Positions 15,470 through 52,387 of a DNA stretch of 64,000 bases are shown one piece after another. The notes below the pieces were generated by a model. That model did not search any database, was not told where the DNA came from, and saw nothing but the letters and a program-made list of their open reading frames with translations. Each line of letters starts with the position of its first letter. Positions within the stretch are counted from its first letter, which is position 1. The stretch comes from Usitatibacter rugosus (lineage in GTDB: Bacteria > Pseudomonadota > Gammaproteobacteria > Burkholderiales > Usitatibacteraceae): the NCBI RefSeq assembly GCF_013003965.1, contig NZ_CP053069.1, forward strand, positions 2,883,419 through 2,947,418. The letters run 5' to 3'. The position numbers were made by a program, and so were the translations under genes.

Positions 15470-16321
15470 ATGGCCGCCGTCCTCTCTTCCCCGGTTCCGG
15501 CCGCGCGCACGCGCCGCGCGCGACCCATCGCCTGGGTGCCTGTCGTACTGGTGGGCGTGGCGCTGCTCTACCTCACATTGTTCCTGTTCATCCCCCTCTT
15601 CGCCGTCTTCTTCGAGGCGCTGAAGAAAGGCTGGGGCGTCTACCTCGCGGCCATCAGCGAGCCCGACGCCTGGGCCGCGATCCGCCTCACGTTCATCGCG
15701 GCGGCCATCGCCGTGCCGCTGAACCTGGTCTTCGGCATCGCCGCCGCTTGGGCGATCGCGAAGTTCGACTTCCGCGGCAAGAGTGCGCTCATCACGCTGA
15801 TCGACCTGCCCTTCTCGGTCTCGCCGGTGGTCTCGGGCCTGATCTACGTGCTGATCTTCGGCCTGCAGGGCTGGCTGGGCCCGTGGCTGCAAGGCCACGA
15901 CGTGAAGATCATCTTCGCGGTGCCCGGCATCGTGCTCGCGACGGTGTTCGTCACGTTCCCGTTCGTCGCGCGCGAGCTGATTCCCCTCATGCAGGCCCAG
16001 GGTCGCGAGGAAGAGGAAGCCGCCGTGCTGCTGGGTGCCAACGGTTGGCAATTGCTGTGGCGGGTCACGCTGCCCAACGTGAAATGGGGTCTGCTCTACG
16101 GCGTGATCCTCTGCAACGCGCGTGCGATGGGCGAGTTCGGGGCCGTGTCGGTCGTCTCGGGCCACATCCGCGGGAGCACCAACACGCTGCCGCTGCACGT
16201 GGAGATTCTCTACAACGAGTATCAGTTCGCGGCGGCGTTCGCCTGCGCTTCGCTACTTGCCTTGCTCGCGCTGGTTACGCTGGCGCTGAAGAGCTGGGTC
16301 GAGATCAAGGCAAGGGCGTGA
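15470..16321 (+). CDS. cysW: Sulfate ABC transporter permease CysW
   Basis: A 283-residue inner-membrane permease, the partner of CysT. It has about six hydrophobic segments, the EAA-type loop [20 protein letters not shown] (residues ~181-200), and the CysW-like stretches [13 protein letters not shown] and [16 protein letters not shown]. It begins 1 base after the cysT stop. Unusually, the next transporter gene, cysA, does not follow directly. A 367 bp non-coding interval containing a large palindromic element separates them. Confidence 0.93.
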
Positions 16322-16336: not shown

Positions 16337-16646
16337 TTTAGAGCACAGAGGACACAGAGGATTCACAGAGGACACAGAGGAAAGCGGATTGAAGGGTAGA
16401 ACGCCTCAGGGGAAACGCTGGATGGAAAGGGAAGGAGGGGAAGGAAAAACGAAGGAAGGGAAGGAAGGCCCTGAAAGTGAAATGGATGCGTCGCGCGGGT
16501 TCGAGACGACGGCATTTCAATCTCATTCAACGATTTCCTTCCCTCCCTTCGCTTTTCCTTCCCTTCCTTCCCCCTAAAAATCGGCATGCAAAGTTTCGCT
16601 TTCCCCTGTGTCCTCTGTGAAGCCTCTGTGTCCTCTGTGTTGAAAA
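16337..16646. repeat. Composite palindromic element, copy A (cysW-cysA gap)
   Basis: This fills the 16322-16688 gap between cysW and cysA. Outer arms (16337-16387 and ~16597-16646) are inverted repeats built of tandem CACAGAGGA-like 9-mers. Inner purine-rich arms (16424-16466 and 16535-16574, of the GGGAAGGAGGGG type) are imperfect inverted repeats around a ~68 bp core (16467-16535). A second copy lies at 50092-50376 with the flanks in the same orientation but the core reversed. I see no coding signal, ribosome binding site or transposase. Short open frames here are low-complexity translations of the repeat. Confidence 0.85.
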
Positions 16647-16688: not shown

Positions 16689-17690
16689 ATGAGCATCGCA
16701 GTCCAGAACGTCTCCAAGAATTTCGGCGCCTTCAGCGCCCTGAACGACGTCACGCTCGACATCCAGCCCGGCGAGCTGGTCGCCCTCCTCGGCCCTTCCG
16801 GCTCCGGGAAGACGACGCTGCTTCGGGTGATCGCAGGCCTCGAGCGCCCCGACCGCGGCTCGGTGCACTTCGAGGGCGAGGACATCACCGACCAGCGCGT
16901 GCAGGACCGCGGCGTGGGCTTCGTGTTCCAGCACTACGCGCTCTTCCGCCACATGACGATCTTCGAGAACGTGGCCTTCGGCCTGCGCGTCCGTCCGCGC
17001 GCGCAGCGCCCGACCGACGCGCAGATCCACCGCAAGGTGAAGTCGCTGCTGGAGCTGGTGCAGCTCGATTGGCTCGCCGACCGCTATCCGCACCAACTCT
17101 CGGGCGGGCAGCGCCAGCGGATCGCACTGGCCCGCGCGCTCGCCATCGAGCCCAAGGTGCTGCTGCTGGACGAGCCGTTCGGGGCGCTGGACGCGAAAGT
17201 CCGGAAGGAGCTGCGCCGGTGGCTGCGCCGCCTGCACGACGAGATCCACCTCACGAGCGTGTTCGTGACGCACGACCAGGAGGAAGCGCTGGAAGTCGCC
17301 GACCGCGTCGTGGTCTTCAACCACGGGAAGATCGAGCAGGTAGGGACGCCTTCGGAGGTGTACGACACGCCCGCCTCGCCGTTCGTCTACCAGTTCATCG
17401 GCCACGTGAACGAGCTGGTGGGCGAGAACGGAATCGCCTATGTCCGCCCGCACGAGATCGACGTCGTGGCCGCCTCGCATCCCGGCGCGGTCGAAGCCGT
17501 TCTCGAGCACGTCGTGCGCCTGGGCCCGCGCGTGCGCCTCGAGCTGCTCGCCAGCGCGGGCAACACACCCCTTGAAGTCGAGCTTTCCGCCGATACCTTC
17601 TCTTCATTGGGCGTGAATGCGGGCGATACGCTGCACATCGCCCCACGCCGCGCCCGGGTATTCCCCATCGACGACGCCAAGGCCGCCTGA
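16689..17690 (+). CDS. cysA: Sulfate ABC transporter ATP-binding protein
   Basis: A 333-residue ABC ATPase energising sulfate import. Walker [10 protein letters not shown] is at residues 35-43, the signature is [16 protein letters not shown], Walker B is [11 protein letters not shown], and the H-loop is [11 protein letters not shown]. The C-terminal ~95 residues form the regulatory TOBE-like domain seen in CysA ([12 protein letters not shown]). An AGGAAG ribosome binding site precedes the ATG. It is separated from cysTW by the palindromic element, so it may depend on readthrough or on its own weak promoter. Confidence 0.94.
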
Positions 17691-48643: not shown

Positions 48644-50032
48644 ATGATTTTAAAGCAGAAATTCAAGTGCCTCGCGCTCGCCGCGGGCCTGGCTCTCGGT
48701 TCCGGCGGGATCTCCGCTGCCGACGCGCCGAAATCGGTGGCCTTCGAGGCGCCGAAGCCCATGGCCTTCCCGCCCGCCTTCGAGGACCCGGATGACGTCC
48801 CCCTGCCGGATCCAGACCTCTGGCACCGCATCCGCATGGGCTTCGCCCTGGAGCCGCTGGAAACGCCCCTGATCGTGAAGTGGGAGGGGTGGTACTCCGA
48901 CCGCCCCGAATACATCGCGCGCTTCGTCGACCGCGGCAGCCGCTACCTCCACCACATCGTGGAGGAGGTCGAGAAGCGCAAGATGCCCATGGAAATCGCG
49001 CTGCTCCCCGTCGTGGAGAGCGCCTTCAACCCCCACGCCTACTCGCGCTCCAAGGCCTCGGGCCTGTGGCAGTTCATCCCCTCCACCGGCAAGAGCTACG
49101 GCCTGTCGCAGGATTCGTGGAAGGACAACCGCCGCGACGTGATCGCCGCCACCGATGCCGCGCTGAACTACCTCGAAAGGCTGCACACGATGTTCGGCAG
49201 CTGGGAGCTCGCGCTTGCCGCCTACAACTGCGGCGAAGGCTGCGTGGGCCGCGCGATCGCCAAGAACCAGAAGAAGGGCCTGCCCACCGATTTCCTGAGC
49301 CTGAACCTCCCGCCCGAGACGCAGAACTACGTCCCGAAGCTGGTCGCGGTGAAGAACATCGTGCTCTCCCCCGCCACCTACGGCGTGGATCTCGGCACCG
49401 TGCCCGACCAGGCGTACTTCACCGCCGTGAAGGCCCCCGAGAAGATCGACGTGAAGCTCGCCGCGAAGCTGGCCGGCATGAGCGAGGAGGAGTTCGTCGC
49501 GCTGAACCCCTCCAACAACGGCGCCGTCGCGGTTTCGAAGGGCACGTTCCTCGTGCCGCTCGACAAGGCCGATGCCTTCCGCACCAACCTCGATGGGTAC
49601 GACAAGCCGCTCGTTTCCTGGACCACCGTGACGGCGAAGAAAGGCGAATCGATCGACTCGCTCGCCAAGCGCTACGGCGTGCCCGCGCACGAGTTCCGCG
49701 CGGCCAACGGCGCCGTCAAGTTGAACAAGAAGGGCTACCTCGCGGTGAACCAGTCGATCATGGTGCCGATGAAGTCCGCCACCACGGTCGCCACCGCCGC
49801 GCCCGCGAAGGCCACGCACGCGAAGCACACCGTGGCCGCCGCACCCGCGAAGATCGAAGCCGAGCCGAAGATCGTCCCGGCCTCCTCCGGCAGCACGTAC
49901 ACCGTGCGGGCCGGCGACACGCTCTACGGCATCGCGCAGAAAGCCGGCGCCACCGTGGACGACATCCTCGCGCTGAACCGCCTCAAGTCGAGCGCGGTGA
50001 TCCAGCCCGGACTCCGGCTCCGCCTTCCTTAA
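48644..50032 (+). CDS. mltD: LysM-containing lytic transglycosylase (MltD-like)
   Basis: A 462-residue exported murein lytic transglycosylase. The signal is around residues 1-26 (MILKQKFKCLALAAGLALGS). The SLT domain holds the catalytic E125 in LLPVVESAFNPHAYSRSKASGLWQFIPS (read in parts) and the AAYNCGEGCVGRAIAKN segment. A central module with a degenerate LysM at ~333-378 and a clear C-terminal LysM (YTVRAGDTLYGIAQKAGATV) complete it. ATG 48644 is preferred over TTG 48623 because it gives a normal signal peptide, but no good ribosome binding site precedes either. Confidence 0.85.
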   Translation: MILKQKFKCLALAAGLALGSGGISAADAPKSVAFEAPKPMAFPPAFEDPDDVPLPDPDLWHRIRMGFALEPLETPLIVKWEGWYSDRPEYIARFVDRGSRYLHHIVEEVEKRKMPMEIALLPVVESAFNPHAYSRSKASGLWQFIPSTGKSYGLSQDSWKDNRRDVIAATDAALNYLERLHTMFGSWELALAAYNCGEGCVGRAIAKNQKKGLPTDFLSLNLPPETQNYVPKLVAVKNIVLSPATYGVDLGTVPDQAYFTAVKAPEKIDVKLAAKLAGMSEEEFVALNPSNNGAVAVSKGTFLVPLDKADAFRTNLDGYDKPLVSWTTVTAKKGESIDSLAKRYGVPAHEFRAANGAVKLNKKGYLAVNQSIMVPMKSATTVATAAPAKATHAKHTVAAAPAKIEAEPKIVPASSGSTYTVRAGDTLYGIAQKAGATVDDILALNRLKSSAVIQPGLRLRLP

Positions 50033-50091: not shown

Positions 50092-50376
50092 TTTCAACAC
50101 AGAGGACACACAGGAAAGCGGATTGAAGGGTTAGAGCGCCTCATGGAAGCGCTGGATTGAAAGGGAAGGAGGGGAAGGAAAAACGAAGGAAGGGAAGGAA
50201 ATCGTTGAGTGAGATGGAAGTGCCGTCGTCTCGAACCCAGGCGACGCACCCACTTCACTTTCAGAGCTTTCCTTCCCTTCCTTCGTTTTTCCTTCCCCTC
50301 CTTCCCCCAAAAATCAGCATTCAAGGTTTCGCTTTCCTCTGTGTCCTCTGTGCCCCCTCTGTGTCCTGTGTTGAGA
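50092..50376. repeat. Composite palindromic element, copy B (mltD-M3 peptidase gap)
   Basis: This fills most of the 50033-50431 gap. Outer arms carry CACAGAGGA-type units. Inner arms (50163-50201 and 50268-50306) are perfect 39 bp inverted repeats around a 66 bp core (50202-50267). It matches copy A at 16337-16646: the flanking unique stretches are in the same orientation, but the core is reverse-complemented relative to copy A (about 60 of 68 positions agree). I see no coding capacity. The rest of the gap, 50033-50091 and 50377-50392, holds nothing else I can identify. Confidence 0.88.
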
Positions 50377-50431: not shown

Positions 50432-52387
50432 TCAACGTTTCCCGGTGATTTCCTTGAAGAACGCGTCGCTCGAAGGCTCGCGCCCGAGGAAGCGCTTCAC
50501 GAGATCCATCGGCTCTTCCTGCGCTCCGTTGGCGAGGATGATGTCGCGGTAGCGCTTGCCCACCGCCGGATCGAGGTAGTTGCCCTTGAACGCGGAGAGC
50601 ATGTCCAGCGCCAGCACTTCCGACCACATGTAGCCGTAGTAGCCGGCCGCGTAGCCCGACGCGAGGTGGCCGAAGGCCGCGGGGAACGTGGTGCCCTCGA
50701 TGTAGCCCAGCGGCGTCTGCTTCTCCACCGCGATCCACGCCTGCATCACCGGCTGCGGCTTTTGCGAGAGCGCCATGTCGAACGCGGCGTACTCCCACTG
50801 TCGCTGGTACTTGCTGCCCTGGCCGTAGGTGCGCGCGGCCTCGAGGCGCTGGATCTGGTCCTTCGTGAGCTGCGGGCACTCCGGGCAGACCGTCTTCATG
50901 AGCGCCAGCGGCTGCTCGTGGCGGACCCACTCCTCGAACATCTGCGAGGGGGCCTCGACGAAATCCTGCAGCGTGTTCGTGCCGGCCTGCGGGTTGTAGT
51001 CCGCGGTCGAGAGCACGCCGTGAAGCACGTGGCCGAACTCGTGGAAGACGGTCTCCATCTCGGCCTGCGTGAGGCCCTTCCGGTCGATGTTGGTCACGAA
51101 CACGGTCATGGGCGTGCGGCCCGTGAGCTTGCTGGCGCCGCGCACGGCCCAGGCGGCGGCGTGCGTGTACTTGCCCTCGCGCGGGAACGGATCGAAGTAG
51201 AAGCTGGAGAGGTACTTGCCGGTCTTCGCGTCCGACACCTCGTAGTAGCGCACGTCCTCGTTCCAGGACTTGACCGCCACCGGCTTGATCTTGATGCCGT
51301 AGAGCGTCTCGGCCACGAGGAAGGTGTAGGCGATCGCCTTCTCCGTCGGGAAGTACTTGCGCAGCTCTTCCTGGTCCACCGCGAAGCGCGCCTTGCGGAT
51401 GCGCTCCTGGTGGTAGTTCACGTCCCAGCGCGAGAACGCGGTCTGGTCGGGGGGCGTGCCGCGCTCCTTCGACTTGTCGGCTCGGAGCTCCTCGAGCTCT
51501 TTCTTCTCGACCTCGCCGACCGCTTGCTTTACCTCGGCGAGGAACTTGTTCACGTTGGCGGGCGTACCGACCATCTTCCGGCGCGTGACGTAGGTCGCGT
51601 AGTCGGGCAGGCCGTAGATCGTGGCGAGCTCCTGGCGCAGGATGAAGAGCGTCTCGAGGATCTTCAGGTTCTGCTCGCCGCCCTGCTTCGAGCGGGCCCG
51701 GTAGTAACGCTCGCGGGCCGCCTCGGACTTCGCGTTCGACATGAAGGGCCCGTAGACCGGCGTATCCAGCTTGAGCACGTAGTTGCCCTGCTCGTCCTTC
51801 TTCTTGTCCTTGAGGTAGGCCTCGGACAAGCCCTCCATCTCGGCGGGCGTCATCGTGACGGTCGTCTTGTCGTCGCGGATGTTGCGGTCGAACGCCTGGC
51901 GGCCCGCTTCGAGCTGGTCGAAGATTTCCTTCACGCGGGCGCGCTTGTCCTGCGGGAGGGTGACGCCGCTGTCCTCGAAGACCTCGAGGAGGTCCTTCTG
52001 CAGCTTCTTCTGGTGGGCGTTGGCCGGCTTGACCGCCTTCACGCGCGCGTAGAGCGCCTCGTTCTGGTTGATCTCGGTGTTGAGCTCGGTGAGCTTGGTC
52101 GAGCACGGCTCGGCGGCGTCGCGCACGGCCTTGTCCGGATGCACGGCACCCAGCAGCGAGACCGGGCCCGCGACGTCCTCGACGGCGATCTGCAGCTTGT
52201 TCCACTCGGCGAGGATGGTGCCGGGTTCCTTCTTCGCCGACATCGCGGCGATGTCCTTGCGGGCCTTGGCCACGGCGGCATCGCAGGCCTTGGTGAGCGA
52301 GGGGGCGTCCCACGAGGGCATGAGCGTCGGAGCGGCAAACGCGGGAAGGGCCGCGAGCAGCGCCGCGGCGAGGATGGTCTTGTTCAT
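50432..52387 (-). CDS. Secreted M3-family oligopeptidase
   Basis: A 651-residue zinc metallopeptidase of the M3 (thimet oligopeptidase/Dcp) family. Signal peptide MNKTILAAALLAALPAFA. The zinc motif H449-E-F-G-H453 is in VFHEFGHVLHG, and the third ligand is probably in DFVEAPSQMFEEW. It is downstream of and co-directional with a peptide ABC transporter, 11 bp after the ATPase gene. The likely role is trimming periplasmic peptides before or alongside import. Length is normal for the family. Confidence 0.9.
   Translation of the reverse strand: MNKTILAAALLAALPAFAAPTLMPSWDAPSLTKACDAAVAKARKDIAAMSAKKEPGTILAEWNKLQIAVEDVAGPVSLLGAVHPDKAVRDAAEPCSTKLTELNTEINQNEALYARVKAVKPANAHQKKLQKDLLEVFEDSGVTLPQDKRARVKEIFDQLEAGRQAFDRNIRDDKTTVTMTPAEMEGLSEAYLKDKKKDEQGNYVLKLDTPVYGPFMSNAKSEAARERYYRARSKQGGEQNLKILETLFILRQELATIYGLPDYATYVTRRKMVGTPANVNKFLAEVKQAVGEVEKKELEELRADKSKERGTPPDQTAFSRWDVNYHQERIRKARFAVDQEELRKYFPTEKAIAYTFLVAETLYGIKIKPVAVKSWNEDVRYYEVSDAKTGKYLSSFYFDPFPREGKYTHAAAWAVRGASKLTGRTPMTVFVTNIDRKGLTQAEMETVFHEFGHVLHGVLSTADYNPQAGTNTLQDFVEAPSQMFEEWVRHEQPLALMKTVCPECPQLTKDQIQRLEAARTYGQGSKYQRQWEYAAFDMALSQKPQPVMQAWIAVEKQTPLGYIEGTTFPAAFGHLASGYAAGYYGYMWSEVLALDMLSAFKGNYLDPAVGKRYRDIILANGAQEEPMDLVKRFLGREPSSDAFFKEITGKR

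What the first reader, a model, noticed from the sequence alone, without database searches (positions are those of the whole stretch)
50092..50376. Composite palindrome whose core is inverted relative to its copy at 16.3 kb
Copies at 16337-16646 and 50092-50376 share left flanks (AAAGCGGATTGAAGGG...) and right flanks (AAAAATC-GCAT-CAA-GTTTCGCTTTCC) in the same orientation, yet the ~68 bp core of one is the reverse complement of the other at about 60 of 68 positions. The core of copy B is bounded by perfect 39 bp inverted repeats (50163-50201, 50268-50306). That is what an inversion between the arms would leave. It could be a rare recombination event, a hairpin-repair product, or an active phase switch. 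I know of no described family with this design.
Basis: partly seen in the sequence, partly recalled or inferred. Interest (0 to 1): 0.75.

Follow-up and report, generated by a model that had tools for sequence, protein, structure and literature searches.

The report
Nested DNA hairpin with flipped loop

Summary
Copies A (16337-16646) and B (50092-50376) share flanks in the same orientation (43/49 and 26/30), while B's 66-nt core matches A's as reverse complement (58/66). B's arms are a perfect 39-bp inverted repeat.

The element is two nested intergenic palindromes. The outer family (O, CACAGAGG-type arms) occurs at 13 places in this genome. The inner family (K, purine-rich arms) has 20 copies here and no match in 27 family genomes. 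Ten K copies share this core. K's own end sequences follow the O flanks in both copies, so the core flipped inside K; K was not inserted twice.

Arms of one K copy are more alike than arms of different copies. Arm homogenisation with spacer inversion is the published signature of polymerase template switching, seen there with spacers of 2-8 nt. Nothing supports a phase switch.

Side finding: one K-arm pair encloses a GxxExxY (PF13366) gene, and 24 of 43 PF13366 loci tested, 40 of them from two families, have long flanking inverted repeats, against 4.2% of mispaired flanks.

The parts
50098..50114 (+). Copy B: left arm of outer palindrome O (CACAGAGG modules; shortened)
50115..50162 (+). Copy B: left mid layer (remainder of O loop plus K's left end sequence CGCTGGATTGAAA); same orientation as A, 43/49
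50163..50201 (+). Copy B: K left arm, 39 nt, perfect complement of the right arm
50202..50267 (+). Copy B: 66-nt core, reverse complement of copy A's core at 58/66
50268..50306 (+). Copy B: K right arm, 39 nt
50307..50335 (+). Copy B: right mid layer (K's right end sequence CCAAAAATCAGCAT plus O loop); same orientation as A, 26/30
50336..50373 (-). Copy B: right arm of outer palindrome O
16344..16380 (+). Copy A: left arm of O
16381..16428 (+). Copy A: left mid layer, including K end sequence CGCTGGATGGAAA
16429..16466 (+). Copy A: K left arm; identical to B's left arm over 38 nt
16468..16533 (-). Copy A: 66-nt core, in the opposite orientation to B
16534..16572 (+). Copy A: K right arm; 36/39 identical to B's right arm
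16573..16602 (+). Copy A: right mid layer, including K end sequence CCTAAAAATCGGCAT
16603..16640 (-). Copy A: right arm of O

Best explanation
The element is a K palindrome (ends, about 38-nt arms, 66-nt core) sitting in the loop of an O palindrome. A and B descend from one such composite. In one lineage the core was inverted inside K by DNA-polymerase template switching: while copying the first arm, the nascent strand moved to the near-identical complementary arm, copied the core (and arm) backwards, and switched back at the second arm. The same process, with or without core inversion, keeps the two arms of each copy alike. Shown: nesting; core inversion relative to K's own ends and to the O flanks; perfect arms in B; excess similarity of the two arms within a copy in K and O. 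Inferred: the molecular mechanism, the single-ancestor history, and which copy is flipped. Polarity is unresolved: standalone copy 3501595 has B's arrangement of ends and core, which favours A as the flipped one; B's two identical arms favour a switching event in B.
For: Flanks in the same orientation, core reversed. K's end sequences keep the same side in both copies: in the core frame the alpha-minus-beta end scores are B left +13, right -7, and A left -14, right +10, as a flip of the core inside K would give (the two end motifs were chosen by me after seeing the copies). The 34-nt left mid-layer query scores 68 on B, 46 on A and at most 27 elsewhere in the loci fetched by then, so A and B look like sister composites. 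Within-copy arm distance is 1.47 against 4.55 between copies over 33 nt (19 copies; 0 of 20000 permutations as low; this set mixes two arm subfamilies). In the 10 core-sharing copies it is 1.4 against 2.26 (p 0.008), in the other 9 it is 1.56 against 5.09 (p 1e-4). Arm variants show no detectable link to core side (cross minus same-side 0.06, p 0.25). O linkers agree between the two arms in 6 of 11 loci (permutation p 0.0008). Both composites fold far better than shuffles as single-stranded DNA (z -12.9 and -13.9). Published precedent: PMC8604942 (abstract, introduction, section 6) and PMC8794818 (abstract, passages).
Against: The published spacers that I saw are 2-8 nt, and PMC8604942 reports that spacers of repeats with template switching are shorter than others; 66 nt is long. 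In PMC8794818, stem correction together with loop inversion was very rare in rRNA (6 cases) and not enriched over simulation, although loop inversion alone (69 cases) was. A and B cores (87%) are no closer to each other than to standalone copy 3508694 (86 and 87%), and the core tree groups A, B and 2481801 only weakly (58/80), so a core brought in from another K copy is not excluded. Likeness of arms within a copy could also come from selection for pairing or from each copy arising by fold-back copying. Further flips among other K copies are not established: end orientation came out 5 one way, 3 the other and 2 ambiguous among the 10 core-sharing copies, and only A, B and 3501595 are clear. 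No reads or second strain were available.
Confidence: 0.6

Rival explanations
1. Ectopic gene conversion: the core of A or B was replaced from another K copy elsewhere in the genome. Because the arms are palindromic, the donor can pair in either orientation, so its core may enter reversed.
For: Eight further copies share the core at other loci, and A and B cores are as close to 3508694 as to each other. Nine more copies share the arms but have cores without clear similarity to this one, so cores are exchanged, lost or fast-evolving.
Against: Among the ten core-sharing copies compared, B's arms are identical only to A's core-right arm (0 of 33 differences; the next nearest arms, of three other copies, have 1). 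A donor would be expected to bring its own arm variants.
Confidence: 0.22
2. RecA-dependent or simple reciprocal recombination between the 39-bp arms inverted the core, with separate later homogenisation of arms.
For: The arms are long and perfect in B.
Against: Simple exchange alone leaves the two arm variants of A in place, yet B has one variant on both sides; it needs an extra conversion step.
Confidence: 0.1
3. Two independent insertions of K into the same point of O, in opposite orientation.
For: K is a dispersed family and sits next to an O half at another place, G000 1228740-1228985.
Against: K's end sequences are not reversed with the core; it also needs the same insertion point twice.
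Confidence: 0.05
4. An active phase switch driven by a site-specific recombinase.
For: The anatomy (perfect inverted repeats around an asymmetric core) is formally that of an invertible switch.
Against: 0 sigma-70 promoter-like sites in both elements; no recombinase among the adjacent ORFs by eye; the arms are the general arms of a 20-copy family.
Confidence: 0.03

Closest known systems
Template-switch homogenisation and spacer inversion at inverted repeats (Abraham and Hazkani-Covo 2021, PMC8604942; Monttinen and Loytynoja 2022, PMC8794818)
   Same: Perfect arms together with a reversed spacer and unchanged flanks; REG2 in yeast, one of ten spacer inversions in that paper, shows both at once.
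   Different: Spacer of 66 nt instead of 2-8 nt; a dispersed bacterial repeat family instead of single genes or rRNA loops; ancestral state inferred from paralogues, not orthologues.
Bacterial MITEs / small palindromic intergenic repeats (ERIC, Correia, BOX and similar; names recalled, not compared)
   Same: Short, mostly non-coding, dispersed, terminally inverted, able to nest.
   Different: Arms take up much of the element, 9 of 19 K copies without a gene have cores with no clear similarity to the common one, and no cognate transposase or target-site duplication was identified (duplications were not searched for systematically).
REP/BIME with RAYT (Y1_Tnp) transposases
   Same: Palindromic extragenic repeats; five Y1_Tnp genes exist in this genome.
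   Different: No O or K motif within the five Y1_Tnp loci of about 3.3 kb; two of the four Y1_Tnp loci scanned for inverted repeats hold GGGTCAGAC-type palindromes instead.

Membership tests
Template-switch spacer inversion | Spacer reversed while outer flanks keep their orientation | tested here: met
Template-switch spacer inversion | Arms homogenised in the affected copy | tested here: met
   B 39/39; within-copy excess similarity in the family
Template-switch spacer inversion | Ancestral state known from orthologues at the same locus | tested here: inconclusive
   No K match in the 27 other family genomes held, some of them incomplete; polarity rests on paralogous copies and conflicts
REP/RAYT | Repeats flank or lie near a Y1_Tnp gene | tested here: not met
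   0 of 5 Y1_Tnp loci contain the O or K motifs searched for
MITE | Non-coding, dispersed, terminal inverted repeats | tested here: met
   one of 20 K copies encloses a gene
MITE | Target-site duplication and shared ends with an autonomous transposon | tested here: inconclusive
   One K-arm pair encloses a PF13366 gene; no duplication could be defined by eye at loci A and B
Site-specific invertible switch | Promoter or coding end in the invertible segment and a recombinase | tested here: not met
   0 sigma-70 promoter-like sites; adjacent ORFs judged by eye only
Site-specific invertible switch | Both orientations present in one population | not testable with these tools
   no reads available

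The most novel reading that the evidence does not exclude
O, K and the palindromes around GxxExxY (PF13366) genes are one class of mobile hairpin element. Full members carry a PD-(D/E)XK-superfamily GxxExxY gene in the loop, and solo members carry a short non-coding loop.
Probability: 0.25. Interest if true: 0.75.

Novelty: new variant of a known kind. Interest (0 to 1): 0.5.

Why it matters
It gives a natural bacterial case in which a long (66-nt) hairpin loop appears to have been inverted in place while the arms of one copy are identical, a likely footprint of how palindromes stay perfect over evolutionary time. The K family (20 copies in one genome) makes the rate and spacer-length limit of this process measurable. 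If the link to GxxExxY genes holds, it would also give a setting to a protein family that my full-text searches found named in only three papers.

Tried and rejected
Chance or low-complexity core match: rejected. Whole-element reversal: rejected. K inserted twice in opposite directions: disfavoured, because K's ends follow the flanks. RAYT-mobilised REP: O and K motifs are absent from the five Y1_Tnp loci. Known RNA family: 0 Rfam matches in the window at gathering scores. Phase-switch promoter: 0 sigma-70-like sites found. K in other genomes: the arm pattern gave 0 stretches in genome contigs, where records near the window's genome may be left out; the K DNA query matched 1 of 28 family genomes, the window's own. 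The tree of the ten cores was too short to resolve A and B. A count of core flips by end orientation is inconclusive beyond A, B and 3501595. Literature for GxxExxY, PDDEXK_3 or PF13366: 2 papers and 2, three different ones in all, seen as listings only and not opened. The term searches listed nothing that I recognised as these elements, by titles and abstract starts only.

Rows dropped before counts: the gene-carrying K copy was left out of the arm permutation (19 of 20 copies used). Ends were scored for 16 of the 19 other copies. Arms compared with B's were those of the ten core-sharing copies. For O linkers, 12 loci were looked at (10 of the 13 O places of this genome and 2 of G002); B lacks the left linker, so 11 entered the test; the 3 O places not looked at showed arm matches on one strand only.

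Full report
CHECK. The window lies at 2883419-2947418 of a single-contig 4.56-Mb genome. A same-genus genome, G002, has 4806848 bases, the length of Betaproteobacteria bacterium GR16-43, CP019169.1. The genus name Usitatibacter is my recollection; one search shows only that such a genus exists. Copies A and B share same-orientation non-palindromic flanks (43/49 left, 26/30 right), whereas the core matches as reverse complement (58/66 without gaps; score 92 against a maximum of -1 in 5000 shuffles). In the same orientation the core scores -11, close to its best shuffle (-7), since the core is partly palindromic itself. B's arms are 39/39 complementary; A's differ at 3 of 33 aligned positions.

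ANATOMY. The structure is a palindrome inside a palindrome. The outer family O has arms of CACAGAGGACACAGAGG modules; a pattern search with one mismatch gave 42 sites (19 forward, 23 reverse) and none for the reversed control, at 13 places in this genome. With the whole element as query, same-genus G002 has five matches and G005 one weak match. A longer O pattern, without mismatch, occurs in 2 of 274 genomes of a class sample, one of them this genome. The inner family K has arms close to AGGATGGGAAGGAAAAGCGGAGGAAGGGAAGGA. A pattern search with three mismatches found 38 arms in this genome, 19 on each strand, and none for the reversed control; one further copy has an interrupted arm, so there are 20 copies. 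K was matched in 1 of 28 genomes held for the family, its own; several of the others are incomplete. Ten K copies share the core (mean scores 41 to 78 against the others). Nine have cores without clear similarity to it (scores 11 to 17, shuffles about 12; three of the nine lie 2.6 to 3.4 standard deviations above their shuffles). The twentieth arm pair encloses a gene.

WHY THE CORE AND NOT ALL OF K WAS TURNED. Outside its arms K has end sequences of two kinds, CGCCGGATTGAAA-like and CGCCGATTTTTAAG-like, which by eye also occur in standalone copies. In both composites the first kind is on the left and the second on the right of the window strand, although the cores point in opposite directions. 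Insertion of K in opposite directions would have reversed the ends too. The motifs were picked after seeing the copies, so the score describes the pattern and is not an independent test; the direct alignment of the mid layers is independent of them. The left mid layer (34-nt query) occurs in no other locus fetched by then at comparable score, so A and B look like sister composites.

MECHANISM. Within-copy arm distance averages 1.47 of 33 against 4.55 between copies (19 copies; 0 of 20000 permutations as low). This set mixes two arm subfamilies; inside them it is 1.4 against 2.26 (ten core-sharing copies, p 0.008) and 1.56 against 5.09 (nine others, p 1e-4). In the separate O family the three- to four-base linkers agree between the two arms in 6 of 11 loci although they differ among loci (p 0.0008). 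Selection for pairing or fold-back origin of each copy could also make arms alike. Arm variants are not linked to core side (p 0.25), which is compatible with past flips but does not prove them. Template switching between inverted-repeat arms is described as giving arm homogenisation and spacer inversion (PMC8604942: abstract, introduction and section 6 seen; PMC8794818: abstract and passages). In the first paper one of ten spacer inversions (REG2) shows both effects at once, spacers are 2-5 bases, and spacers of switching repeats are shorter than others. In the second, inverted loops are typically four and up to eight nucleotides; loop inversion alone was enriched over simulation (69 cases), stem correction with loop inversion was not (6 cases). 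Here the spacer is 66 nt, but its partial palindromy extends the hairpin (folds; z -12.9 and -13.9).

POLARITY. At the three positions where A's arms differ, B carries A's core-right variant on both sides. A snap-back copy of one arm would give this, and makes B look derived. Standalone copy 3501595 has B's arrangement of ends and core, which makes A look derived. By my reckoning both histories need two events; I leave this open.

CONTEXT. Both composites lie between ORFs that I take to be real. A lies between ORFs read by eye as sulphate-transport permease and ATPase genes (stop at 16321, start at 16689). B lies between a LysM/lytic-transglycosylase-like ORF ending at 50032 and a convergent M3-peptidase-like ORF ending at 50432. 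At the site of A, G001 has only a short gap and no palindrome by eye, and G002 has a different O-like palindrome of 40-nt arms, 93% complementary, with a 38-nt gap. At the site of B, G001 has an unrelated perfect inverted repeat of 77 nt with an 18-nt loop; the stretch of G002 scanned has none of 20 nt or more. Hairpins at these two sites thus differ among the three species.

SIDE FINDING. The K-arm pair at G000 2753566-2753592 and 2753989-2754015 encloses an ORF matching TIGR04256 GxxExxY and PF13366. PF13366 was found in 12 of 28 family genomes and 25 of 150 phylum genomes, of which most belong to one other family, f24. Of 43 loci tested (16 from the window's family, 24 from f24, 3 from other families), 24 have a flanking inverted repeat of score 20 or more (13 of 16 and 11 of 27) and 34 of score 15 or more (14 of 16 and 20 of 27); among 1806 mispaired flanks the fractions are 4.2% and 7.0%. 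The mispaired set includes related loci with the same arms, which raises its top end, and the 43 loci are not all independent. Many arms are built of short modules like those of O. Against a strict link: 9 of 43 loci score below 15, and apart from the one K pair the arms are not K. In gaps beside similar transporter-like ORFs, several family genomes carry such elements with different arm modules but the same gene direction relative to the neighbours (by eye); this suggests concerted drift of both arms and no flip of the long cargo.

VERDICT. It is best read as an in-place inversion of a 66-nt hairpin loop in a palindromic repeat family seen so far only in this genome, by a known mutational mechanism. 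Ectopic conversion from another K copy is the main rival. Assembly error cannot be excluded without reads; the genome is one contig and the stretches read contain no undetermined bases.

Noticed in passing
L182 (G000 2753566-2754015) and loci L165-L214: GxxExxY/PF13366 genes tend to lie between inverted repeats of short modules (score 20 or more in 24 of 43 loci tested against 4.2% of mispaired flanks; 40 of the 43 from two families); one has K arms. I found no description of this (listings only).
   Followed up: partly
L143:170-341: In G001 the site corresponding to copy B holds an unrelated perfect 77-nt inverted repeat with an 18-nt loop; its arms contain GGGGTCAGATCCC.
   Followed up: no
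L144:1123-1176 and L148:1382-1437: Two of the four Y1_Tnp (RAYT-like) loci scanned in this genome have GGGTCAGAC-type palindromes near the gene.
   Followed up: no
L128 (G000 1228740-1228985): A K-type palindrome with a different core lies directly beside a single O arm pair, a second, different K/O junction.
   Followed up: no
L171, L172, L175, L178, L179, L180, L181: Gaps beside similar transporter-like ORFs in several family genomes carry GxxExxY palindromes whose two arms differ between species but match each other; the gene direction is constant where seen (by eye).
   Followed up: partly
L166 (G002, around 3851988-3852332 and downstream): A GxxExxY palindrome whose right arm region contains a further short O-like hairpin, again a nested arrangement (by eye).
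   Followed up: no
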